Shown here piece by piece: positions 1 through 10,526 of a DNA stretch of 11,972 bases. The notes under the pieces were generated by a model. That model did no database searches. It saw only the letters and a list, made by a program, of their open reading frames with translations, and had not been told where the DNA came from. A program made the translations under genes and the position numbers. Origin of the DNA: Halanaerobiales bacterium (lineage in GTDB: Bacteria; Bacillota_F; Halanaerobiia; DY22613); NCBI GenBank assembly GCA_023128035.1, contig JAGMES010000124.1, positions 1 through 11,972 of the forward strand, read 5' to 3'. Numbering within the stretch: the first letter of the stretch is position 1; each line of letters starts with the position of its first letter.

Positions 1-1077
1 CGTCTCGAGTCGTGAAAAGATTTGATTAATGCCTGGCATAATATCATTGTTCGCTGCTTGCGTACGTATACCCTCACTATTAAGCTTCGCTATGTAACGT
101 GGTTCACTTGGATCAGCATAACAACAATCAACTCCAGTCACTCCATTATCGTGATACTTTTTTGTGAAGCTTGCATTAATACTTTTCACTACATCAATGA
201 ACTGAGTCATTTGTATTTGACTCTCATAAAACTCTTTTAGCACGCAAACTCTATCGTCGGAATCAACACCGCACAACAAGTAAACTTGTGGATTGGTAAA
301 CCCCCAGTCAATTCCGGCAACGAGTCTTACTGGATGAAAGTCTTTGCTATCGATTATGTGAACGTCTGCACTAAAATTCTTGTACACTAGTCCTTCGAAT
401 CCAATGAACGATCCTTCAAGTTCTTGTTTCGCAAAAGCCCCAACATACAAACTTTCCATTGCTTTCTTGTACTCTTTAGGAGTGTAAGGATTATCACGTG
501 TCTTGCCGCCAAAGATCTCGTAATCGTGTGGATCATCTAAGTAAGTGTTATCTTTTCGCTTTTTCTCAAAGAATAATCTATATAGCCAGTTAAAGCCTTT
601 AGGTGTTGTAGTGTACCAAAGTTTTAATGATCCTCGTGCATCTCTTAAACGTGCTACTAATATATCATGTAAGTACTCTGGACAAAGTGCCACTTCATCT
701 CCATAAGCTCCTCCGATGTTAAGACCACGAATACGATCCAGGTCTCTTTCATTATCACCAGACAAACAAATTATTTCAGTATCGTTAATAAGTTGGATTG
801 TATTATCACTACGATTATACTTTTTAACTAATTCGTGAGGACAGAACTTAAAGAACTCTCTTAGTGTAGCATTCTTGAGCATACGAAAAGTTGGGGCGAT
901 CATAACAAACTGACATCCTGCTTTAGCACTCATTGCTTGAATAATAAGCTCATTAACACCAGCTGCAGACTTACCAAAACCTACACCAGTACATATTAAT
1001 CGAAACTTAGCTTTAGAACTATGAAAATCTTTTTGCTTATGATGCGGGAAATATTCCACGCTAAGCGTATCACCCAT
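1..1077 (-). CDS. terL: Terminase large subunit, C-terminal part cut by window edge
   Basis: DNA-packaging motor: an ATPase that pumps viral DNA into the prohead plus an RNase H-fold nuclease that cuts concatemers. The frame is open for 359 codons from ATG at 1077 and runs off base 1. The ATPase shows a variant Walker A, TGVGFGKSA (residues 30-38, with Thr where Gly/Ala is usual), Walker B GGAYGDEV with D127-E128, and a TTTP coupling motif at 156-159. The nuclease shows GIDWG (D257), an acidic residue in KEFYES (E282) and YADPSEP (D322); the last catalytic Asp would lie beyond the edge. The start is supported by GAGGTGA at 1086-1092, 8 bases upstream. It is the last visible gene of the leftward packaging unit, preceded by a terminator-like hairpin. 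G+C is near 40% and Arg codons are often CGT/CGA, unlike the AT-rich neighbours, which hints at a separate history. The identification is secure. Confidence 0.94.
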   Translation of the reverse strand, partial: MGDTLSVEYFPHHKQKDFHSSKAKFRLICTGVGFGKSAAGVNELIIQAMSAKAGCQFVMIAPTFRMLKNATLREFFKFCPHELVKKYNRSDNTIQLINDTEIICLSGDNERDLDRIRGLNIGGAYGDEVALCPEYLHDILVARLRDARGSLKLWYTTTPKGFNWLYRLFFEKKRKDNTYLDDPHDYEIFGGKTRDNPYTPKEYKKAMESLYVGAFAKQELEGSFIGFEGLVYKNFSADVHIIDSKDFHPVRLVAGIDWGFTNPQVYLLCGVDSDDRVCVLKEFYESQIQMTQFIDVVKSINASFTKKYHDNGVTGVDCCYADPSEPRYIAKLNSEGIRTQAANNDIMPGINQIFSRLET

Positions 1078-1214: not shown

Positions 1215-1607
1215 TTAAACTTTTCTGTCCGTCTCTTTTTGATTTTTATTTTTATATTCTATTGCAATTCCAACAGAAGCACTAAAACCTTTTCTTATTT
1301 TATCAAAACAACATTCTCTCTCTATAATTAATATTTTTCTATATGGGTTTTCAATATATTTAGAAGTTTCTTTAAATAATTTTTCAATTTCTTTTATAAT
1401 TTCTCCATATGTATCTTTAAAAAAACATGTTGGAGTTACTACATATGAATCTCCAGAAAATATTTCATCATTATCTGTTCTTGCCCAAAAATTTTTAAAT
1501 AATGGAAATTTTATTGCACCACAATTTCTCTTACTATTATTATGATATAAAGTTAAATCAATACAATCAAACATTTTTAAAATTTTTTTATTTTCTAATA
1601 TTTTCAT
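1215..1607 (-). CDS. Hypothetical protein, 130 residues
   Basis: I do not recognise this protein. It starts at ATG 1607 with GAGGTAA just upstream and overlaps the end of the Cys-rich gene before it by 20 bases, which suggests coupled translation. It has no clear membrane segment or signal peptide. It carries scattered Cys residues (RNCGA, PTCFF, ERECCFD) and a charged amphipathic stretch around residues 67-85. The C-terminus is Lys/Asn/Gln-rich. Its place between the small proteins and the large terminase suggests a packaging- or virion-related accessory role, but that rests on position only. Codon use (AAA, ATT, AAT) matches the AT-rich bulk of the window and not the terminase. Confidence 0.68.
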   Translation of the reverse strand: MKILENKKILKMFDCIDLTLYHNNSKRNCGAIKFPLFKNFWARTDNDEIFSGDSYVVTPTCFFKDTYGEIIKEIEKLFKETSKYIENPYRKILIIERECCFDKIRKGFSASVGIAIEYKNKNQKETDRKV

Positions 1608-1791
1608 TTTTTACCTCATTAAATCTTTTTTCCTGTCTCTTTTTTTGATTAAACAATTTACTTTTAATAGCATGCACTTTTCTTGCACAACTTTTACAAT
1701 ATTTTCTTTGACAATGACGTACTGAATAATCACTCAACGGAATCAATATTTTACACTCTTGACATTGAGTCTGTCTTGCATTTCTCTTCAC
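1588..1791 (-). CDS. Small Cys-rich, putative zinc-binding protein
   Basis: A 67-residue basic protein with CQEC at residues 10-13, Cys 27, and CKSC at 32-35. This spacing fits a four-Cys treble-clef or zinc-ribbon-like knuckle with one spare Cys. A Lys/Arg-rich tail follows, as expected for a nucleic-acid binder. The start is a choice between TTG at 1794 and GTG at 1791. The binding site AGGTGA lies 6 bases before the GTG and only 3 before the TTG, so I prefer GTG. The gene lies immediately downstream of the GC-rich folded RNA, so its leader would contain that structure, and control of this gene through the RNA is a reasonable inference. It overlaps the next gene by 20 bases. Molecular function is unknown. 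Confidence 0.7.
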   Translation of the reverse strand: MKRNARQTQCQECKILIPLSDYSVRHCQRKYCKSCARKVHAIKSKLFNQKKRQEKRFNEVKNENIRK

Positions 1792-1813
1792 CAATCTTCA
1801 CCTCTTTTCCCAC

Positions 1814-1926
1814 GGGACAAAAACCAAACTATGTTGAGAGTCGAACTCACCCACTCTCGGTGGGACATAATGAGAGTTCAGTTGCTTTACTTGACGGAAA
1901 CCGCTAAGTCCCTGTTAACAAGTGTC
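1814..1926 (-). ncRNA. Candidate structured RNA with three-way junction
   Basis: This stretch is roughly half G+C inside a region near 20%, and it has no convincing coding frame. Read leftward it folds by hand into: P1, GGGAC (1912-1908) with GTCCC (1818-1814); P2, a hairpin with CGG/CCG core at 1903-1895; and P3, ATTATG (1871-1866) with CATAGT (1833-1828). P3 encloses P4 (CCCAC/GTGGG, 1864-1850) and P5 (TGAG/CTCA, 1849-1835). P5 has the heptaloop TTCGACT, which matches a tRNA T-loop. P3-P4-P5 form a junction with linkers of only 0-1 base. P3 contains a G-U pair that would be an A-C mismatch on the opposite strand, favouring leftward transcription. It ends 8 bases before the ribosome binding site of the Cys-rich gene. 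I could not fit an intact tRNA. It could be a cis-regulatory leader, a tRNA-derived remnant or a free viral RNA. Confidence 0.5.
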
Positions 1927-2055
1927 CTATCGTGAAAAAATTAAAAATAAATTTAAAACAAAAAATATTATATTTATTAAACACAACCACCAATTACAAG
2001 TTATAGCAGACACTATTGTTAATGTACCAAACCAAATTAATAAAATATAATTCAT
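1927..2055 (-). CDS. Small hydrophobic membrane protein, 42 residues
   Basis: This short gene reads from ATG 2055 to TAG at 1927. The product is almost wholly hydrophobic, with two likely membrane segments (residues 3-17 and 23-40) around a short polar Cys/Asn/Trp turn (ITCNWWLCL). GAAGG stands 6 bases before the start, and the stop of the upstream gene lies 2 bases before it; an in-frame ATG at 2061 would overlap that stop. Size and topology resemble small phage membrane proteins such as holin-like or accessory lysis proteins, but no family is recognised and archaeal lysis systems differ. The folded RNA begins just after the stop codon. Confidence 0.6.
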   Translation of the reverse strand: MNYILLIWFGTLTIVSAITCNWWLCLINIIFFVLNLFLIFSR

Positions 2056-2057
2056 AT

Positions 2058-2330
2058 TCATCCTTCTACCTGTGCAGAACCACGATACATATGACAAGGA
2101 ATATAATTTCCATTTAAATTTTTAATATAACAGTCTTTAACGTTAATATTAAATAATTTGTAATTAACCATTTTTACATCATTACCTTCTTCCATTAAAT
2201 TATTACATTTAATAACTTCTTTATAAGAAATTATTTTTGAAACACTAAACATTATTAAACAAACAACTAAAACTCCTATTAAAAACATAATACAAACATC
2301 TCTAATTATTTCTTTTGTATATTCATTCAT
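2058..2330 (-). CDS. Single-pass membrane protein, 90 residues
   Basis: The product has a short charged N-terminus (MNEYTKEIIRD), one strong membrane helix at about residues 12-34, and a soluble domain of about 55 residues with Cys residues that could pair (IKCNN, KDCYI, IPCHM). The frame is open further upstream to 2405. ATG 2330 is chosen because GAGGCGA stands 6 bases before it and because the start overlaps the stop of the putative small terminase gene in ATGAATGA, a typical coupled junction. The upstream extension would only repeat terminase sequence in another frame. No family is recognised. A role in host membrane interaction or exit is possible but unproven. Confidence 0.66.
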   Translation of the reverse strand: MNEYTKEIIRDVCIMFLIGVLVVCLIMFSVSKIISYKEVIKCNNLMEEGNDVKMVNYKLFNINVKDCYIKNLNGNYIPCHMYRGSAQVEG

Positions 2331-3069
2331 TTTCTTTCGCCTCATTATCTTCAACAATCTCAATATCAATAATTTTGTGCTCAACAACTTTATTATCAAC
2401 AACATCTTCTTTTACTGCATCAGCATCAATCATAAACTTTGGTTTAACCCACTGCACAACAATTTTCTTGTCAACATTTTCAATCTGTACACTAGTTTTT
2501 GGATTACCAAACTTTCTATCAAACACTGCTAACTGTAATCGTGCCAAACTTTCCAATTCTTTCTTCAATCTTGTTTCATCTTTTTCTTTCTGAGCAATTA
2601 AACATTTGATTGTTAAGTCATGCATAACTTTCACAACAGATTCAATAGCTTCAATTTGAACCACTGCTTTTTTTGCACCATAGAACTTACGCATATTTTG
2701 TATTTGTTTTATTTTATCTTCTTTAGTTATTCCAGCAAGTTTTTCTAAAGCATTCGGAGTGATAAGTTTTAATACTTCAGGATTATTAGATCTTCTACCA
2801 TGCTTCAATCCATTCAATCTAACTGCTTTTGCTTTCTTCTTCGTCTTTACTAATCCTCCTTGCCTGGCAGTCTCTTGATTCCATTTCATTCCTCTTTGCC
2901 ATTTTAACTTACTGCCTTCCTGATTATTAGATTGATTGTCTAGTTGATTGCTCGATCGATCCTTTATCTCCTTTGTCTTCTTTGTCTTCTCTATCTTCTC
3001 TATCTTCTCTATCTTCTCTAGGTTGATTTTTTCTATCATTTTGAATTGACACAATGTTAAACTCTTCAT
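2323..3069 (-). CDS. Putative terminase small subunit; N-terminus uncertain
   Basis: A leftward 248-residue basic protein with an acidic tail. After a low-complexity N-terminus (EKI repeats, about residues 16-30) comes KWNQETARQGG and a Lys-rich stretch, a mostly helical middle, then FDRKFGNPKTSVQIENVDKKI near residues 184-205. That last stretch has the look of C-terminal parts of phage small terminase or related DNA-binding packaging proteins. Position supports this, since it precedes the large terminase in the same unit. The start is unsettled. ATG 3069 has no ribosome binding site and the first 143 bases overlap the 87-residue gene in another frame; an internal ATG at 2889 would give 188 residues. 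Family assignment is by resemblance and context, not by a diagnostic motif. Confidence 0.6.
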   Translation of the reverse strand: MKSLTLCQFKMIEKINLEKIEKIEKIEKTKKTKEIKDRSSNQLDNQSNNQEGSKLKWQRGMKWNQETARQGGLVKTKKKAKAVRLNGLKHGRRSNNPEVLKLITPNALEKLAGITKEDKIKQIQNMRKFYGAKKAVVQIEAIESVVKVMHDLTIKCLIAQKEKDETRLKKELESLARLQLAVFDRKFGNPKTSVQIENVDKKIVVQWVKPKFMIDADAVKEDVVDNKVVEHKIIDIEIVEDNEAKENE

Positions 3070-3190: not shown

Positions 3191-3216
3191 TTATATTATT
3201 TAATATTATTTAAATA

Positions 3217-3232
3217 CTATATATATCTTTCT
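3217..3232 (-). promoter_or_regulatory. BRE/TATA promoter for leftward packaging unit
   Basis: Read leftward it is AGAAAG followed by ATATATATAG, an archaeal BRE plus TATA box. It is followed by an AT-rich stretch also seen at the promoters at 7540 and 10511. ATG 3190 begins 42 bases after the start of the BRE, so transcription should begin at about 3196 to 3190, giving an almost leaderless message. Confidence 0.7.
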
Positions 3233-3347
3233 ATTTTATAATATTATATACCACATAAATAACACCACATACTAACACCACAATACACCTCAAAAATCCA
3301 TGGATCACACCTGAAACACTTTATGTCCCATTAAGTAGAAACATATA

Positions 3348-3509
3348 TCAATGTGTATATTGAAACTTCTTGTCCTTGTATGCTTCCCATGCTTGATTAA
3401 AAAATTTAGTTATACTAATTCCTCTATCTTGCATTTCATTCAAATCTGCAGCTGAAAGATAAATGCTTCTTTGAACCCTTTCATCTTCATAAAATTTTTT
3501 TCTTGCCAT
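3348..3509 (-). CDS. Ribbon-helix-helix-like regulator, 53 residues
   Basis: A short gene from ATG 3509 to TGA at 3348. The product has a basic N-terminus (MARKKF), a strand VQRSIYLS (residues 12-19), helix 1 AADLNEMQDRG (20-30) and helix 2 ITKFFNQAWEAYKDKK (33-48). This is the classic strand-helix-helix order of Arc/CopG-type repressors common in archaeal viruses, which bind operators as dimers through the paired strands. GAGGT lies 9 bases before the start, and a BRE-TATA element (3577-3561) stands about 60 bases upstream. It borders the non-coding centre, so regulation of the divergent promoters there, or of itself, is plausible. Confidence 0.75.
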   Translation of the reverse strand: MARKKFYEDERVQRSIYLSAADLNEMQDRGISITKFFNQAWEAYKDKKFQYTH

Positions 3510-3560
3510 TTATTAGGTACCTCAGTAATTATTATAATTATTAATATAAATAATATAATT

Positions 3561-3577
3561 AATATTTAAATGTTTCC
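3561..3577 (-). promoter_or_regulatory. BRE/TATA promoter for the 53-residue gene
   Basis: Read leftward it is GGAAACA followed by TTTAAATATT. This matches the GAAACA plus TTTATATATA element of the divergent rightward promoter near 4095. Transcription would start near 3540, giving a leader of about 30 bases that contains the GAGGT ribosome binding site. Confidence 0.55.
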
Positions 3578-3772
3578 ATTTTATTTTAATCAAAAAGAGT
3601 CAAATTTTTAGTCAAACTTGGACAAAACGCTCGTATGCTTGGTTCTATAACATTAATATTTTAATACTATTAATACTATTAATTTCCTATTTATAAAGTT
3701 TTATCAAGTATTATAAAGAAATATCATCATTTTCGCAATCTCAAAATTAAGGTATAATAAAACATATATATA

Positions 3773-3788
3773 TGGACAAAACTGGACA
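3773..3788 (+). repeat. Two TGGACA sites, 10 bp apart
   Basis: TGGACAAAAC is followed directly by TGGACAAAAA, so both hexamers face the same side of the helix. A further single copy, TTGGACAAAA, lies at 3618-3627. The spacing suggests cooperative binding of a dimer or array-forming protein. Confidence 0.55.
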
Positions 3789-3834
3789 AAAATTCTTATA
3801 AATTTGTATAAATAACTAAAAATATTCTCTGTCC

Positions 3835-3855
3835 AAAAAAAAAAAAAAAAAAAAA
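3835..3855 (+). repeat. Run of 21 adenines
   Basis: An uninterrupted A tract directly follows a TGTCC site. It may act as a rigid or easily melted element beside the repeats. On the opposite strand it is a T tract that could also stop leftward transcription. Its length may be affected by sequencing error. Confidence 0.7.
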
Positions 3856-3935
3856 TACATACCATTATATAGAATTTATTTACTTTCTATATACTTTTCT
3901 TTTTAAATCTAACTATTGTTATATAAACATCTTAG

Positions 3936-3965
3936 TATTACTAATATTATTAATATTACTAATAT
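3936..3965 (+). repeat. 12-bp direct repeat TATTACTAATAT, period 18
   Basis: The 12-mer TATTACTAATAT occurs at 3936-3947 and again at 3954-3965, separated by TATTAA. It abuts the long inverted repeat that starts at 3961. In DNA this AT-rich, such repeats can arise easily, so weight is modest. Confidence 0.5.
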
Positions 3966-4014
3966 CTTTTCGACTAGACTGGGCGACTTATGTCCAGACG
4001 AATTTTAAGATATT
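3961..4014. repeat. 54-bp imperfect inverted repeat
   Basis: AATATCTT (3961-3968) pairs with AAGATATT (4007-4014), TTCG (3969-3972) with CGAA (3999-4002), and CTGG (3979-3982) with CCAG (3994-3997). The interruptions are a TTTT bulge and an internal loop. The centre is notably GC-richer than its surroundings and contains one TGTCCA site. It could form a cruciform at an origin, bind a dimeric protein, or fold as RNA. Confidence 0.55.
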
Positions 4015-4041
4015 AATTGATACAATTTAATACACATTTTG

Positions 4042-4057
4042 TGTCCAACTTCGTCCA
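4042..4057 (-). repeat. TGTCCA/CGTCCA pair, 10 bp apart, inverse sites
   Basis: TGTCCAACTT is followed by CGTCCAAAAA. These are inverse copies of the TGGACA element with the same 10-bp period as the pair at 3773-3788. They lie about 40 bases upstream of the rightward TATA box, so they could serve as operator as well as origin sites. Confidence 0.5.
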
Positions 4058-4086
4058 AAAACTTATATTTTACAAAATTATAAAAA

Positions 4087-4105
4087 TAGAAACATTTATA
4101 TATAT
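4087..4105 (+). promoter_or_regulatory. BRE/TATA promoter for regulator-helicase-primase unit
   Basis: ATAGAAACA is followed by TTTATATATAT, an archaeal BRE and TATA box. The expected transcription start is near 4125-4130, leaving a leader of about 15-20 bases that holds the AGGTGGT ribosome binding site. It is the only strong promoter seen before the three overlapping or closely packed genes that follow. Confidence 0.68.
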
Positions 4106-4144
4106 GTTATACATTATATAATAAAAATTGAAAAGGTGGTAAAA

Positions 4145-4360
4145 TTGACAGAAGAAAACAAAAAAACAAACGAAAAAGAAAATTTCGACACAAGTAAATT
4201 TGTTGTCGAAAAAACATTAAAAGCATGGGGAAATTCATCCGCTATTATTCTAACAAAAGATTTAGCAAAATTTCTAGAAGTAAAAATAAATGATACTATA
4301 TGTATAGTTCCTGAAACAGGAAAACATGGCAAATTTTTAGCATTATATAAAAAAAAATAA
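4145..4360 (+). CDS. AbrB/SpoVT-type DNA-binding regulator
   Basis: A 71-residue protein. An N-terminal polar tail (about 19 residues, Glu/Lys/Asn-rich) precedes an AbrB-type swapped-hairpin domain: VEKTLKAWGNSSAIILTKDLAKFLEVKINDTICIV. The WGNSSAI turn and the LEVKINDTI segment are the family hallmarks. These proteins dimerise through interlocked beta hairpins and bind DNA, often as transition regulators or antitoxin-like repressors. TTG 4145 is preferred because AGGTGGT (4134-4140) stands just upstream; the frame stays open to a GTG at 4136 that lies inside that binding site. It is first in the unit, so self-regulation at the promoter above or binding to the neighbouring repeats is a sensible guess. 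Confidence 0.82.
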   Translation: MTEENKKTNEKENFDTSKFVVEKTLKAWGNSSAIILTKDLAKFLEVKINDTICIVPETGKHGKFLALYKKK

Positions 4361-4381
4361 TTATCTTTGGTAATAAATCAA

Positions 4382-6493
4382 ATGATAGTTAATAAGCTCA
4401 GTAAAACAGAAATTGAAAAATATAAACTCATTTTTGAGACTTCTTTTGGAGAATTAAAATATACAAGTGTTGAAGTTAAAAGTTTTATAATAAACAAATT
4501 AAAAGAATCTAGTCCTAAAATTAATTTCAATGAAATAATTAAGAGTGATAATAAATTCACAATAAGAAATAGATTTTTCTTAACCAATATGATATTAAAT
4601 GAAGATTTTCATAAAGAACTTTATGATAATTTTTTAGTCGCAAAAATAACTAATAAAATAACTGAAGAAAAAAATGATGATATAGATGATGATATCTTTG
4701 AAATGCAAGATAATACATATATTTTAAATAAGGAATTCACAAACAAAGAAATACAAGAGATTTATTATAGATCAGCTGGATTCTTCAAGATGAAATATGA
4801 TTTTAATAAGAGCAAACTTAAAACATATGAACTCGACACAAATATAAATTCTTTACAACGAGTTAACATAACAATACTACAGAATTTTGGCACATTCAAT
4901 GAATTTGCTAGATTAGAATACAGATGTCCTAAATGTGGAAAAGAATTCTTAAAGGGAAAGAATGATATTGAATCTAATGATCTTGTGAAGTGTCCATTCA
5001 AAAATGTAATGTCTAATAAGATGTGTAACGGTTCATGTAAAACACCAACAAATAATTCAGATAAATTTAATATGTATATTTATCAAGGAATTTTCACTTC
5101 AAAAGATCTAATTACTAAAAAAGAAAAAGATAATCACATAATTATTTTCTCTCATCTTGAATTAAATTCAATAGAATATGATTCAATTGTACTTTCATTA
5201 TCATCTAATCAAAAACAATATCTACAAATACTAGATGCTAAGCCAATAATAAATAACATCTTAGATTTTACAGAATTATATGAATTAAAACCTGAAGAAG
5301 ACAAAGATCTTGTTTATGATACTGTAAAATTTTTTGATTCAGTTATTAAAAAACTATCACGTAAAGAAATACATGGTATAATGGATATTAAATTTGCATT
5401 GCTTCGACAAAAATTAGCTAAATATAATGGTCTACCATTACATCAAAATATCGCATTGAGAGGAGACAAGGGAACAGGAAAAACTATGATTGTAGATAAG
5501 TATTGTATATTATTATATAACAATTTATATAAATCTACCAAAGGAACAAACACAAGTGTCCCAGCACTAAGAGGTAGTGCAATAGATTCAATATCACATA
5601 ACGATACACAACTCCAACCACCTGGATTACTAAGTATTTACCATGCAATAACAATAGATGAAGCGAATAGTGATCCATTTATTGTGAAATATTTAAGAGG
5701 AATGTTATTATCATCAGAAATATCAAATGACAAAGCGGGTGGCAGTAAAATAATATATTCTAGAACAGCACACGTTAATATTACAGAAAACGTTTCTTCT
5801 ACTCATCAATCAAAATATAAAGCAATTGTTAAGAAAGAATTTGACAAAATTTCTAACGCAAAAGAAGTGAATATTGGTGAAAGTATTTTTAATCAACTTA
5901 GTGATTGGAAAAATGATTGGGATTTGATGCAACCATTATCAAATTATACTAATAAAAAATTAAGAGAATCACTGAAAGAAGCACGTAAACATTCAGTCTT
6001 TGCAGACATTCATTGGTTATATGGCTGTGATATGCCAGACCTTGACAGATTTTGTGTAAATTTTTATATAAGAAACACACATAATGAGAAACTTAAAGAA
6101 ATAATAGGAATATCAACGATTAAAGATTACTATAGTAAAAAGAACAAAAAAAACTTATTTGTAGGAAACATCGATGAAATATTTGAATATTACAAACAAT
6201 TTAACAGAAAAAAAACAGATGTTCAAACAATAAATAAGATAAGAAAAATACTATTGAATTTCTTTGAAGGTGATATTAATAGCAGATTAGAATTAAATTG
6301 TTATTTTATAGCAGATTGCAGTAGAATATTCAATAAGAGAATGCATTTTAATGAAATAGATATAGGTCATGTTAAACGATTTATTAGTTTAACAAATAGA
6401 GCTATAGATTTAGAGGAAATGAACAGTTTTATTTATCCTAAAACAATGGATGAAGGTATTAATATTAATAAAAAAGGTATACAACTTGATTGA
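4382..6493 (+). CDS. MCM-like replicative helicase (AAA+)
   Basis: Probable ring helicase that unwinds DNA at the viral fork. Numbering from ATG 4382 (703 residues): a long N-terminal region holds a zinc knuckle, CPKC at 182-185 with Cys 204, 215 and 219. The AAA+ domain shows Walker A GDKGTGKT (361-368) and Walker B ITIDEAN (D426-E427). Next comes SSEISNDKAGGSK at the place of the MCM pre-sensor hairpin, then VNITEN as sensor 1 and DLDRFCVNF as the arginine-finger segment (LSRFD in cellular MCM). Length is close to cellular archaeal MCM but the sequence is divergent. The frame opens at TTG 4367, 6 bases after the previous stop; neither start has a clear ribosome binding site. The end overlaps the next gene. 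MCM is the best fit; another AAA+ helicase is less likely. Confidence 0.82.
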   Translation: MIVNKLSKTEIEKYKLIFETSFGELKYTSVEVKSFIINKLKESSPKINFNEIIKSDNKFTIRNRFFLTNMILNEDFHKELYDNFLVAKITNKITEEKNDDIDDDIFEMQDNTYILNKEFTNKEIQEIYYRSAGFFKMKYDFNKSKLKTYELDTNINSLQRVNITILQNFGTFNEFARLEYRCPKCGKEFLKGKNDIESNDLVKCPFKNVMSNKMCNGSCKTPTNNSDKFNMYIYQGIFTSKDLITKKEKDNHIIIFSHLELNSIEYDSIVLSLSSNQKQYLQILDAKPIINNILDFTELYELKPEEDKDLVYDTVKFFDSVIKKLSRKEIHGIMDIKFALLRQKLAKYNGLPLHQNIALRGDKGTGKTMIVDKYCILLYNNLYKSTKGTNTSVPALRGSAIDSISHNDTQLQPPGLLSIYHAITIDEANSDPFIVKYLRGMLLSSEISNDKAGGSKIIYSRTAHVNITENVSSTHQSKYKAIVKKEFDKISNAKEVNIGESIFNQLSDWKNDWDLMQPLSNYTNKKLRESLKEARKHSVFADIHWLYGCDMPDLDRFCVNFYIRNTHNEKLKEIIGISTIKDYYSKKNKKNLFVGNIDEIFEYYKQFNRKKTDVQTINKIRKILLNFFEGDINSRLELNCYFIADCSRIFNKRMHFNEIDIGHVKRFISLTNRAIDLEEMNSFIYPKTMDEGININKKGIQLD

Positions 6494-7541
6494 TGAAAAA
6501 TTATTATATAAATTTTGGTCGTATTTAACAAGCGATTATAGAATATTAATAGAATATTGTGAAATACGTGTTTTACCAACCGATAAAAGATTATATAATA
6601 TAATGTATATTTGGGCTAAAGAGAACAACGTGTACATAAAAAACAAATCACAACTATTCTTTAGAAAACGAGACTTTAATTTATTATATAAATTCCTTAG
6701 TCATAAAAATTATGTTGTGGTAAAAAATGCTAAAGTTTGTTACACTTTAAATCCTAGGGTAATGGTGAATGGTGAAATAATAAAGAGCGGATACGATAAC
6801 ATGCGTAGTGTTTATATGGTATTCTTAGATATTGAAATGGTTAATCATAAAGTAATGAACATATTTGAAAAGAAATTATTAAAAGCACAAATAATAAAAA
6901 AAATAATTAATCCTTTAAAAAATTCTAAATTAAAACACCATATATTAATAGACAGTGGGAACGGCTATCATCTACTATATAAAATTAAGAGATCAGATAT
7001 TTCTAAATCAAGAAAAGCTTGGTTTAAAAAATTTATTAATTATATGATAGAATCTTTTAACGACACAAATTATCGTATTGATCCTCTTAAAGACTTTACA
7101 CGTATATTTGCATTACCGTATACTATCAATCAAAAACATAACAGAGTAGTACAAGTTATCAATCCTAAATATCAAAGAAATGAGATAACAATGCCATTTG
7201 TACGGCTTAAAAAAAAACTAAAATACAATATGTTTATGCCAATCGGCTCAACAGTAGAAAAATCATTAGTATGGAACTTATTACAACAAGATATCCCACA
7301 AGGAGAAATACATTTAACATTAATTTTTGCACTTAAATTATTATTAAAATCATTGAATTTAAATTATAGTATTTATGAAGATAAATTAAATATAATAAGA
7401 GATAGTAGTCATTCACTAAATTATAACACAGGTTGTGATGGAAAACATTACAATAAGGGAATTGTTATTAATTGGTGTAAACGAAATATTGAATGGTGTG
7501 ATAAAAATTTTAAAGATTGGAAAGATAACAAGTATATTTAG
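6486..7541 (+). CDS. Primase-polymerase-like protein (AEP fold)
   Basis: Probable enzyme that starts DNA chains on the viral template. From TTG 6486 (351 residues), three archaeo-eukaryotic primase features appear in order. VFLDIEM carries the metal-binding pair D115/E117 (D-x-E rather than the usual D-x-D). DSGNGYHLLYKI supplies the Gly-x-His nucleotide site (H162). DPLKDFTRIFALPYTIN gives a third acidic site (D199 and/or D203) with Arg 206 and Pro 211, as in replication-type PrimPols. No zinc knuckle or helicase is fused to it. TTG 6486 is chosen because AAAGGTAT lies just upstream and it overlaps the helicase stop by only 8 bases; ATG 6450 in the same frame would overlap by 44. Placement directly after an MCM-like helicase fits a helicase-primase pair. 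Confidence 0.75.
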   Translation: MIDEKLLYKFWSYLTSDYRILIEYCEIRVLPTDKRLYNIMYIWAKENNVYIKNKSQLFFRKRDFNLLYKFLSHKNYVVVKNAKVCYTLNPRVMVNGEIIKSGYDNMRSVYMVFLDIEMVNHKVMNIFEKKLLKAQIIKKIINPLKNSKLKHHILIDSGNGYHLLYKIKRSDISKSRKAWFKKFINYMIESFNDTNYRIDPLKDFTRIFALPYTINQKHNRVVQVINPKYQRNEITMPFVRLKKKLKYNMFMPIGSTVEKSLVWNLLQQDIPQGEIHLTLIFALKLLLKSLNLNYSIYEDKLNIIRDSSHSLNYNTGCDGKHYNKGIVINWCKRNIEWCDKNFKDWKDNKYI

Positions 7542-7556
7542 AAAGATTTATATATA
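7540..7556 (+). promoter_or_regulatory. BRE/TATA promoter for the acidic-protein gene
   Basis: AGAAAG and ATTTATATATA form BRE and TATA and overlap the stop codon of the primase gene. They are followed by GTAGTATTAATAATATTA, shared with the promoter near 10511. Transcription probably starts near 7575-7580, giving a leader of about 45 bases. Confidence 0.7.
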
Positions 7557-7592
7557 AGTAGTATTAATAATATTAATATTACAAAACAAAGA

Positions 7593-7611
7593 GCTCGTAT
7601 GAGCACGGAGG
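7593..7611 (+). promoter_or_regulatory. Leader hairpin and strong ribosome binding site
   Basis: GCTC-GTAT-GAGC forms a 4-bp hairpin at 7593-7604, followed at once by GGAGG at 7607-7611, 9 bases before ATG 7621. This is the strongest ribosome binding site on the rightward strand and implies high expression, as expected for a protein needed in bulk. Confidence 0.5.
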
Positions 7612-7620
7612 AATTAGAAA

Positions 7621-8247
7621 ATGGAAGAAGAAAAAAAAAGTGTATTTGAGGAAACAGCAGCAAAAGAAATAATGCCCGGTGCAACAATTAATCCGGAAGA
7701 AGACAAAGAAGTTCTATCATCTACTGAAAAAGAAGATGATTTCATTATTGGTGAATTGCAAGAGACAGAAATCAAATTGTTTATCTTAAGTGATGAAGAT
7801 GATAATGAAGACAATAAAAAAGAATTTGTAATTGAAAGCGTTGAATTAATGAAGCCAATTACAAAGAATGTAGATGGAGTTATTGAACCATTAAAAAGTA
7901 ATGGGAAAAAATATTATCAAACAAAACTAAAAATATTGTATAAAGACACAGACTATGCATCATATATTCCAAACATTAAGTGGTATTTGGGATTAGATAA
8001 AGAGGGAAAGAAGACTTTAACTCCGTGGTTTAGGTTGAAATGCGTAGAAGAAGATTTGAAAGATAACTTTACACCAGAAATAACCAAAATGTATTATAGG
8101 TTTTGTAATAAATTCGATATTGAAGTTGGAAAACTAACAAGAAATGAATTTGTTGATCAACTTGTAGGAAAGAAAGTTATTTTAAAGAACACAAGCGGAA
8201 AATATAATGGAAAAACCTGGAATAGAATAGATATAAAATCTTTCTAA
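7621..8247 (+). CDS. Acidic protein, possible single-stranded DNA-binding protein
   Basis: The 208-residue product has a strongly acidic, low-complexity N-terminal quarter (Glu/Asp-rich to about residue 70). A compact domain of alternating strands follows: EFVIESVELMKPI, YQTKLKILYKDTDYASYIPNIKWYLG, and a C-terminal GKKVILKNTSGKYNGKTWNRIDIKSF. The beta-rich pattern, the closing Tyr-x-Gly-x-x-Trp-x-x-Ile stretch and the position between primase and nuclease-helicase resemble phage OB-fold ssDNA-binding proteins. I saw no diagnostic motif, so this is context plus pattern. An acidic tail at the N-terminus would be unusual, since SSBs normally carry it at the C-terminus. The gene has its own promoter and strong ribosome binding site, and a T-rich tract follows it. 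Confidence 0.7.
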   Translation: MEEEKKSVFEETAAKEIMPGATINPEEDKEVLSSTEKEDDFIIGELQETEIKLFILSDEDDNEDNKKEFVIESVELMKPITKNVDGVIEPLKSNGKKYYQTKLKILYKDTDYASYIPNIKWYLGLDKEGKKTLTPWFRLKCVEEDLKDNFTPEITKMYYRFCNKFDIEVGKLTRNEFVDQLVGKKVILKNTSGKYNGKTWNRIDIKSF

Positions 8248-8259
8248 TGAAAGATGATA

Positions 8260-8281
8260 TTTTTATTTTTATTTTTATTTT
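8260..8281 (+). terminator. T-rich tract, likely transcription terminator
   Basis: Four near-repeats of TTTTTA follow the stop codon at 8247 by 12 bases. Archaeal RNA polymerase terminates on such T-rich runs. A new promoter begins directly after, so the acidic-protein gene is probably a single-gene transcript. Confidence 0.55.
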
Positions 8282-8286
8282 ATAAA

Positions 8287-8302
8287 GCGAAATATATAAA
8301 AT
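8287..8302 (+). promoter_or_regulatory. BRE/TATA promoter for nuclease-helicase gene
   Basis: GCGAAA is followed by TATATAAAATAT. The expected start near 8320-8325 gives a leader of about 35-40 bases, with AGAGGAT at 8344-8350, 10 bases before ATG 8361. It lacks the downstream AT module seen at the other promoters. Confidence 0.5.
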
Positions 8303-8360: not shown

Positions 8361-10526
8361 ATGAAATGGAATTTTGATTTAAGTTATTCAAGTTATTCAA
8401 CTTATAAAGAATCACAATTAATTTTTTATTTTAATAAAATTGCAAAGTTACCTATAGATACAAAAGTACCAGAAGTTTATGGTAATGTAGGTAATATTTG
8501 TCATACAATCGCAGAAAAATATATAGAAAATAAAAATATAAATCTTTTAAATGAATTTAATATATTATGGGATAAATATAAAATAAATAGTAAGCGAGGT
8601 CTTAATGGTAAAATATTACCTAAACCATTATGGTTAAATCAAATATTAATTATTAAAAAATATATTGATTTTAATTTTAAAAATAAAAATATAATTACAG
8701 AAAAATATCTTGAATATTTAGGAGATGAATTTAATGGATTAAAAATAAAAGGATATGTTGATATTTTTATTAAAAATAATAATAAAATAATTTTATATGA
8801 TTGGAAAACTAATTCTTCTCATAATTATAATACACATAAATTACAACGAAAATTTTATTCTTGGTTATGTTATAAAATATATAATATTATTCCAGAATGT
8901 ATTTGGTATTATACTAGAAAAACAAAAGAAGAAAAAGATATTTTTACAAAAAAAGAATTAGATGATTTTACAAAAGAACTTATTGAATTTAAAAATAATA
9001 TAATTAACAAAGGAAAAAATATAGATAATTATGATACAGGAAAATTTGATGGTATATTTAATAGTCATTATAAAAAATGCAGAGAAGAAAATCAAAGAAG
9101 ATTAAATATCAATAATATTATGTGCACTATAAAAAATAATACTATATATATACACACAAAATTAAGTAAAGAATTACTAAACACATTAGATAATGAATAT
9201 TCATACAATATAGAAGGTGCGATTTGGAGTAATCTATACAAGAGAGGAATTTGGGATGGAAAAAAACACCTTTTTATTAGAGGAAAACAAACTTTACCAT
9301 TAGGATTATTTTTTAGTTTATTAGATTTACTAAAAAAATATAACGCATATTATAAAACAGAACTTAAAATTAAAGTGATTGATGATAGAAACAAAGAAAT
9401 CATGTTTAAGAAATTTAATAAAGTATATAAGAAATCATTATTAAATTTACATTATTATCAAAAAGATGCTATTAATATTGCAATAAAGAAAGAAATGGGT
9501 ATAATATACATAGGAACAGGTGGCGGTAAAACAGAAATCGCCAAGGAAATAATAAGAAGGGTTGATGGTCGTAGTTTATTTGTTGTAAATAGAATTGAAT
9601 TAGCAAATCAAACAGTAGACGAATTTAAGAAAGATCTTACCAATAATGTAGGAGTATTAATTGAAGGTAATTTAGATATTTATAATAAAGTTACTATTGC
9701 ATCTATTCAAACAATAGCAGCAATATTGAAACGTAAAGATGAAACAACAGAAAAACTAAAAATATTTTTAAGTAATATTAATGTATGTTTTTGGGATGAA
9801 TGTCAGAATATAAAATCAACTGGCATGTATGGTGTGTTTAGTACTAATTTAATAAATTGTAGATATTTATTTGGTCTAACAGGCACACCATTTAGAGCAG
9901 ATGAAAATACATTGATGATGAATGGTGTTGTTGGATTTTCTATTTATATTAAAACTACTGAAGAATTACAAGACGAAAATTTCATTTGCAAAAGTAGATG
10001 TTTATTTATTGATAATAAAAAAACAAAACAAGATGTATACGAAAAATTTACTGAAAAATATAATGAATTTATTGTGAAAAACGAAGATAGAAATTCCTAC
10101 ATAAAAGATATAGTAGATAAAAATCCTGATAAGAAAATTCTAATTGTCACAAAAATAATAAAACATGGAGAAATGTTAAGCAAAATGTGTGACGGATATT
10201 TGATAACAGGCACAACTAATAGGAATTTGAGGAAAGATTATTTTGATGAGTTTAAAAACAGCGGTAAAAATGTATTAGTTGGTAGTGTTAAAATATTTTC
10301 ATCTGGCATTAATATTCCTAATCTTGATATAATTATCAATGCTTGTGCAAACAAGTCTGATGTAGACACGATACAAACTATTGGTCGTGTATTGAGAAAG
10401 AATACTAATAAAACTGAAGGATTATATATAGATTTTTACGATAATGATACATACTTCAAAAAATTCAGTGATGAAAGAATAAAAATATTAGAAAAATACG
10501 GTCATAAAATAGAAAGATTTAAATAG
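8361..10526 (+). CDS. RecB/Cas4-type nuclease fused to UvsW-like SF2 helicase
   Basis: A 721-residue two-enzyme protein. Residues 1-240 are a PD-(D/E)xK nuclease: GNICHTIAEKY (H48), GYVDIF (D134), LYDWKTN (D147, K149) and QRKFY (Q162, Y166). The four-Cys iron-sulphur set of Cas4 and many RecB-type exonucleases is not evident. Residues about 250-350 resemble the N-terminal DNA-binding domain of T4 UvsW (KRGIWDGKKHLF, W298-G300, then LPLGLF). Residues about 365-710 form an SF2 helicase: Walker A GTGGGKT (385-391), DECQ (479-482), LTGTP (506-510) and QTIGRVLR (672-679). Expected roles are end processing and remodelling of branched DNA or R-loops during recombination-dependent replication. The nuclease-coding DNA is much richer in A/T than the helicase part, hinting at a recent fusion. 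Start supported by AGAGGAT upstream. Confidence 0.9.
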   Translation: MKWNFDLSYSSYSTYKESQLIFYFNKIAKLPIDTKVPEVYGNVGNICHTIAEKYIENKNINLLNEFNILWDKYKINSKRGLNGKILPKPLWLNQILIIKKYIDFNFKNKNIITEKYLEYLGDEFNGLKIKGYVDIFIKNNNKIILYDWKTNSSHNYNTHKLQRKFYSWLCYKIYNIIPECIWYYTRKTKEEKDIFTKKELDDFTKELIEFKNNIINKGKNIDNYDTGKFDGIFNSHYKKCREENQRRLNINNIMCTIKNNTIYIHTKLSKELLNTLDNEYSYNIEGAIWSNLYKRGIWDGKKHLFIRGKQTLPLGLFFSLLDLLKKYNAYYKTELKIKVIDDRNKEIMFKKFNKVYKKSLLNLHYYQKDAINIAIKKEMGIIYIGTGGGKTEIAKEIIRRVDGRSLFVVNRIELANQTVDEFKKDLTNNVGVLIEGNLDIYNKVTIASIQTIAAILKRKDETTEKLKIFLSNINVCFWDECQNIKSTGMYGVFSTNLINCRYLFGLTGTPFRADENTLMMNGVVGFSIYIKTTEELQDENFICKSRCLFIDNKKTKQDVYEKFTEKYNEFIVKNEDRNSYIKDIVDKNPDKKILIVTKIIKHGEMLSKMCDGYLITGTTNRNLRKDYFDEFKNSGKNVLVGSVKIFSSGINIPNLDIIINACANKSDVDTIQTIGRVLRKNTNKTEGLYIDFYDNDTYFKKFSDERIKILEKYGHKIERFK
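10511..10525 (+). promoter_or_regulatory. BRE/TATA promoter inside the end of the helicase gene
   Basis: AGAAAG plus ATTTAAATA lies over the last codons of the helicase gene, followed by GTATTAATAATATTAATA. ATG 10552 is 41 bases from the BRE start, almost the same distance as at the leftward promoter (42), so a nearly leaderless message is expected. It would drive the 169-residue gene and the DNA polymerase. Confidence 0.6.

What the first reader, a model, noticed from the sequence alone, without database searches (positions are those of the whole stretch)
1814..1926. GC-rich RNA with near-perfect three-way junction and T-loop inside the packaging operon
In an AT-rich viral operon this ~110-base stretch stands out in base composition and lacks a coding frame. 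On the leftward strand it folds into five helices. P3 encloses hairpins P4 and P5 with linkers of 0-1 base; P5 has loop TTCGACT like a tRNA T-loop; P1 (GGGAC/GTCCC) closes the whole domain. A G-U pair in P3 favours the leftward strand. In AT-rich archaea, GC-rich islands are a known sign of structured RNA. I could not complete a tRNA. It may be a tRNA-derived element, a leader switch, or a free RNA.
Basis: partly seen in the sequence, partly recalled or inferred. Interest (0 to 1): 0.78.

Follow-up and report, generated by a model that had tools for sequence, protein, structure and literature searches.

The report
GC-rich spacer with tRNA-like hairpin
Between two genes of an AT-rich, probably archaeal virus lies a short GC-rich non-coding stretch with a hairpin that looks like one arm of a transfer RNA, but its proposed fold is no more stable than chance and no relative was found to test it.

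Summary
The composition anomaly is real. The 132 bases between the stop of a small hydrophobic ORF (1927) and the start of a small cysteine-rich ORF (1794) are 46% G+C, against 25.5% for the window and 18-24% for three other intergenic gaps.

The rest weakens. Stretches of 99 bases or more fold no better than shuffles (z -0.73 to +0.74, leftward strand). The drawn junction lies 0.6 kcal/mol above a competing hairpin. A tight three-way junction of this size occurs in 82 of 2000 shuffles, though none of 2000 also has the T-loop. Rfam and ARAGORN at default find no known RNA, nor does a home-made cloverleaf test beat shuffles. No second copy of the element was found, so the covariation test could not be made.

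I cannot separate an ordinary cis-acting intercistronic leader from a GC-rich spacer without a selected fold. A viral tRNA mimic is possible but unproven.

The parts
1795..1926 (-). GC-rich intercistronic stretch, 132 bases
   Evidence: 46.2% G+C, no leftward frame, between ORF 1927-2061 and ORF 1588-1794
1814..1912 (-). domain closed by P1 (GGGAC 1912-1908 with GTCCC 1818-1814)
   Evidence: complementarity; pair probability 0.98 for three pairs, 0.51-0.54 for two; z -0.73
1889..1909 (-). P2 hairpin ACTTAGCGGTTTCCGTCAAGT
   Evidence: in the minimum-energy fold; z -4.3 for 1888-1909
1823..1882 (-). further helix ACTGAAC 1882-1876 with GTTTGGT 1829-1823, overlapping the end of P3
   Evidence: complementarity; partly used by the minimum-energy fold
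1828..1871 (-). P3-P4-P5 three-way junction, 7+5+4 pairs, no linkers
   Evidence: 0.6 kcal/mol above the best fold
1835..1849 (-). P5, T-arm-like hairpin TGAG-TTCGACT-CTCA
   Evidence: only T-arm in the window; 15 of 5000 shuffles of the stretch have one
1798..1805 (-). presumed ribosome-binding site AGAGGTGA of the cysteine-rich ORF
   Evidence: read from sequence; bases 1803-1799 predicted paired with 1924-1920, but 14.7% of 300 shuffles hide it as well
1588..1794 (-). 68-aa cysteine-rich ORF downstream of the stretch
   Evidence: no Pfam match above cut-off
1927..2061 (-). small hydrophobic ORF upstream, stop codon at 1929-1927

Best explanation
It is an intercistronic stretch of the leftward packaging mRNA that acts in cis. 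Inferred mechanism: the GC-rich RNA folds into a compact domain, closed by P1 and by outer pairing of the end of the previous ORF with the ribosome-binding site and the GTG start of the cysteine-rich ORF. That ORF is poorly translated until ribosomes finishing the upstream ORF open the helix (translational coupling). Shown: the gap, its composition, the complementarities, and the absence on this strand, upstream of it as far as 3218, of a promoter motif like those elsewhere in the window. Inferred: transcription, folding in the cell, any effect on translation.
For: Position exactly between two co-directional ORFs, 132 bases, while two of the neighbouring ORF junctions overlap. No leftward match to the promoter-like motif AGAAASATTTATATA (up to 3 mismatches) between 1372 and 3217, so it is probably co-transcribed. 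In the fold of 1770-1945 bases 1803-1799 (ribosome-binding site) and 1791-1789 (GTG) are paired with probability about 0.8 or more with 1924-1920 and 1934-1932 at the end of the upstream ORF.
Against: The hiding of the site is not unusual: 14.7% of 300 shuffles hide the ribosome-binding site as well, 60.7% the start, 9.3% both. Fold stability equals that of shuffles. No relative with a conserved element was found.
Confidence: 0.3

Rival explanations
1. A GC-rich spacer without a selected fold, for example a remnant of acquired DNA; the helices are what 46% G+C sequence gives by chance.
For: z-scores near zero; tight three-way junctions in 82 of 2000 shuffles; the large terminase gene nearby also departs from the window's composition, 38% G+C.
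Against: The T-arm hairpin is unlikely in shuffles of the stretch (15 of 5000) and the junction plus T-loop more so (0 of 2000), although both were chosen after the fact. Other gaps measured are AT-rich.
Confidence: 0.3
2. A DNA site: the cos/pac packaging start or an operator between the terminase genes, its inverted repeats being protein-binding sites.
For: It lies in the terminase region. ACTCTC occurs there three times in alternating orientation (1836, 1853, 1872), against two other places in the window, 220 and 855.
Against: P3, P2 and the further helix contain G-U pairs that would be mismatches in a DNA cruciform or on the other strand (read from sequence). No packaging-site data exist for this virus; the small-terminase assignment is a guess.
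Confidence: 0.2
3. A tRNA mimic: P3 as acceptor-like stem, P4 as variable-arm-like stem and P5 as T-arm, without D and anticodon arms, cut by host RNase P or RNase Z to split the polycistronic message.
For: T-arm sequence; a 20-base pattern around it matches one place in the viral contigs, a tRNA-Trp in L088; seven-pair P3 abuts P5 without linker.
Against: No CCA follows P3. Passages of PMC5723415 say E. coli RNase P wants a T-stem beside an acceptor stem ending in CCA and human RNase P at least one base between the two stems; neither holds. T-stem of four pairs only. P5 has ensemble probability 0.21-0.26. The review has no word on archaea.
Confidence: 0.1
4. A real tRNA gene, intron-bearing or otherwise odd.
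For: T-arm; ARAGORN with a lowered threshold and introns allowed proposes a tRNA-Cys with a 90-base intron.
Against: Nothing at default; no tRNA match in Rfam up to E 10. Own cloverleaf score 19 with one segment removed (25 shuffles: 17-20) and 14 without (25 shuffles: 10-17). The 5' half of the ARAGORN candidate lies in the upstream ORF.
Confidence: 0.03

Closest known systems
tRNA T-arm, e.g. of the tRNA-Trp in L088 (594-670)
   Same: Shares GGGTGAGTTCGANTCTCAAC
   Different: No D-arm, anticodon arm or 5' acceptor strand found here
Viral and cellular tRNA-like structures (review PMC5723415, passages seen)
   Same: Would place a T-arm-like hairpin beside an acceptor-like stem within an mRNA
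   Different: No CCA, no linker base, four-pair T-stem; processing untested
Intercistronic translational-coupling helices (recalled)
   Same: End of one gene can pair with the ribosome-binding site and start of the next
   Different: Pairing not beyond chance; no test of translation
Packaging RNA (pRNA) of phi29-like phages (recalled)
   Same: A three-way junction RNA close to packaging genes
   Different: No Rfam match of any kind; the terminase here matches Terminase_6N and Terminase_3

Membership tests
tRNA | T-arm with TTCRANN loop | tested here: met
   1849-1835, four-pair stem
tRNA | Cloverleaf scored as tRNA by a family model or tRNA finder | tested here: not met
   ARAGORN default 0 genes; no tRNA in Rfam search up to E 10; relaxed cloverleaf score within shuffles
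tRNA-like structure processed by RNase P/RNase Z | T-arm beside an acceptor-like stem | tested here: inconclusive
   can be drawn but ensemble probability 0.21-0.26 for P5
tRNA-like structure processed by RNase P/RNase Z | Cleavage by the processing enzyme | not testable with these tools
   needs biochemistry
Any RNA family of Rfam 15 | Covariance-model match | tested here: not met
   0 matches up to E 1 in the window; only GlsR9 at E 5.9, far below its gathering score and on the other strand
Translational-coupling leader | Next gene's ribosome-binding site hidden by pairing with the upstream gene | tested here: inconclusive
   predicted, but as in 14.7% of 300 shuffles
Conserved structured RNA | Compensatory base changes among relatives | not testable with these tools
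   no second copy found

The most novel reading that the evidence does not exclude
A virus of an archaeon carries, inside its packaging operon, a minimal tRNA mimic (acceptor-like stem, variable-arm-like stem and T-arm, without D and anticodon arms) that draws the host's tRNA-processing enzymes to cut the message and set the amounts of the genes on either side.
Probability: 0.08. Interest if true: 0.7.

Novelty: new member of a known kind. Interest (0 to 1): 0.25.

Why it matters
If the tRNA-mimic reading held, it would show how small a tRNA-like substrate archaeal RNase P or RNase Z accepts, and give an example of RNA-level control in an archaeal virus. As it stands it is mainly a caution: a striking hand-drawn fold in a GC-rich island gets no support from stability statistics, and only relatives or an experiment can settle it.

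Tried and rejected
Rfam: whole window, the stretch with loose limits, 14 terminase-bearing loci at gathering scores: no usable match. ARAGORN: window 0 genes; of 26 terminase-bearing loci only L019 has tRNAs; relaxed settings on the region give mutually inconsistent weak candidates, among them a permuted-tmRNA one on the other strand.

Relatives: terminase homologues exist (87 proteins including the window's own; 80 viral and 6 genome loci kept). blastn of the stretch against the 87 loci held then gave nothing better than E 5.4. tblastn of ten other window proteins found none at 1e-3 there; repeated on 93 loci with the terminase as control, the terminase matched in 88 and the ten in none. Viral-contig scans with the helicase alignment and with the Cas4/UvsW-like, cysteine-rich and primase-like ORFs gave no relative. 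blastn against phage records: none for the stretch; plasmids: none for 4136-8300.

A covariance model from this one sequence was run on the window and all 89 loci then held: besides itself only L088 (a tRNA, E 0.089), L031 (E 2) and L020 (E 4.6), taken as noise. Ten genomes or records: none. blastn of 128 bases in 398 genomes of one archaeal phylum: 21 places in 20 genomes, 17-27 bases, best E 9e-4; the four loci looked at (L090-L093) have no ARAGORN tRNA and were taken as chance, the other 17 places were not looked at. The helicase alignment in 300 genomes of that phylum: none. That was the only archaeal phylum I reached and need not be the host's.

Dropped: group I intron or known ribozyme (no Rfam match); attP remnant of a tRNA (no integrase recognised in the window, host tRNAs unknown).

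Full report
What is there. The window is an AT-rich (25.5% G+C) virus contig. Leftward ORFs run from 3509 down to a large terminase at 1077-1; rightward ORFs hold an AbrB-like protein (by eye), a helicase-like protein with weak MCM similarity, a primase-like protein (by eye), a PD-(D/E)XK nuclease/UvsW-type helicase fusion and a family B polymerase exonuclease domain. Copies of AGAAASATTTATATA with up to 3 mismatches are enriched (20, against a mean of 8.1; 0 of 200 shuffles reach 20), and the four best (0 or 1 mismatch) lie just upstream of gene starts. They look like archaeal BRE/TATA promoters (label recalled; an abstract seen in a listing, PMC5316973, names an A-rich BRE and TATA box in an archaeon). 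I therefore take the virus to be archaeal; no host was identified.

The stretch. 1926-1795 lies between the stop codon of a small hydrophobic ORF and the start of a 68-aa cysteine-rich ORF, with AGAGGTGA at 1805-1798 as the likely ribosome-binding site. It is 46% G+C; gaps 1078-1214, 3191-3347 and 3510-4135 are 18%, 24% and 19%. It has no leftward reading frame.

The fold. The claimed helices can be written. A further one, ACTGAAC/GTTTGGT, overlaps the end of P3 by two bases. The minimum-energy fold of 1813-1920 is -26.5 kcal/mol; forcing P4 and P5 gives -25.9. P4 and P5 compete with pairing of GAGAGT (1858-1853) to a copy of ACTCTC (1841-1836); a second copy lies at 1877-1872. Leftward z-scores for stretches of 99 bases or more lie between -0.73 and +0.74; the rightward strand is similar. 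Energy thus supports neither a selected structure nor a strand. Two short hairpins, P2 and 1833-1860, do better than their shuffles.

The T-arm. TGAGTTCGACTCTCA is the only T-arm-like hairpin in the window by my definition. At least one occurs in 28 of 300 whole-window shuffles and in 15 of 5000 shuffles of the stretch. In 861,427 bases of 89 loci there are 19; eight lie in tRNAs called by ARAGORN (three in L088, three in L019, two in L036) and eleven do not. So the hairpin is suggestive in this place, not proof. A 20-base pattern around it has one match in the viral contigs, a tRNA-Trp in L088.

Relatives. No second copy of the element was found. The closest terminases are 59% identical or less; those whose DNA I held reach 45% and share no other tested window protein. 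The comparative test is open, not failed.

Reading. I give equal weight (0.3 each) to a cis-acting leader and to a spacer without selected fold, 0.2 to a DNA site, 0.1 to a tRNA mimic and 0.03 to a true tRNA. For the leader, predicted pairing hides the ribosome-binding site and the GTG start, but 14.7% of 300 shuffles hide the former as well and 9.3% both. For the mimic, the T-arm speaks in favour; the missing CCA, the missing linker base and the low probability of P5 speak against.

Literature. Six searches of the paper library listed no report of such an element in an archaeal virus among the titles and abstract starts that I saw; passages of one review were read (PMC5723415). That GC-rich islands mark structured RNAs in AT-rich hyperthermophiles is recalled; whether this host is one is unknown.

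Noticed in passing
window 3324-4056: GGACA-type words cluster in the gap between the divergent operons, several as TGGACAAAA or its complement. GGACA occurs 17 times in the window against a mean of 8.1 in shuffles (0 of 200 reach 17), eight of them in 3324-4046. Possibly operators or a replication origin beside the AbrB-like gene.
   Followed up: partly
window 4088-4102 +, 7540-7554 +, 3218-3232 -, 10511-10525 +: Promoter-like motif AGAAASATTTATATA before gene starts, suggesting an archaeal host.
   Followed up: partly
window 1-1077: The large terminase gene is 38% G+C, the richest ORF of those measured, in a 25.5% window.
   Followed up: no
window 2965-3020: Nine-base tandem repeat of about six copies, read as EDR/EDK repeats in the leftward 87-aa ORF and overlapping the long form of the ORF 2323-3069.
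   Followed up: no
window 4367-6493: Helicase-like ORF with only three homologues found among the 7987 candidates scored (100%, 59%, 31% identity) and no match in the phage records.
   Followed up: partly
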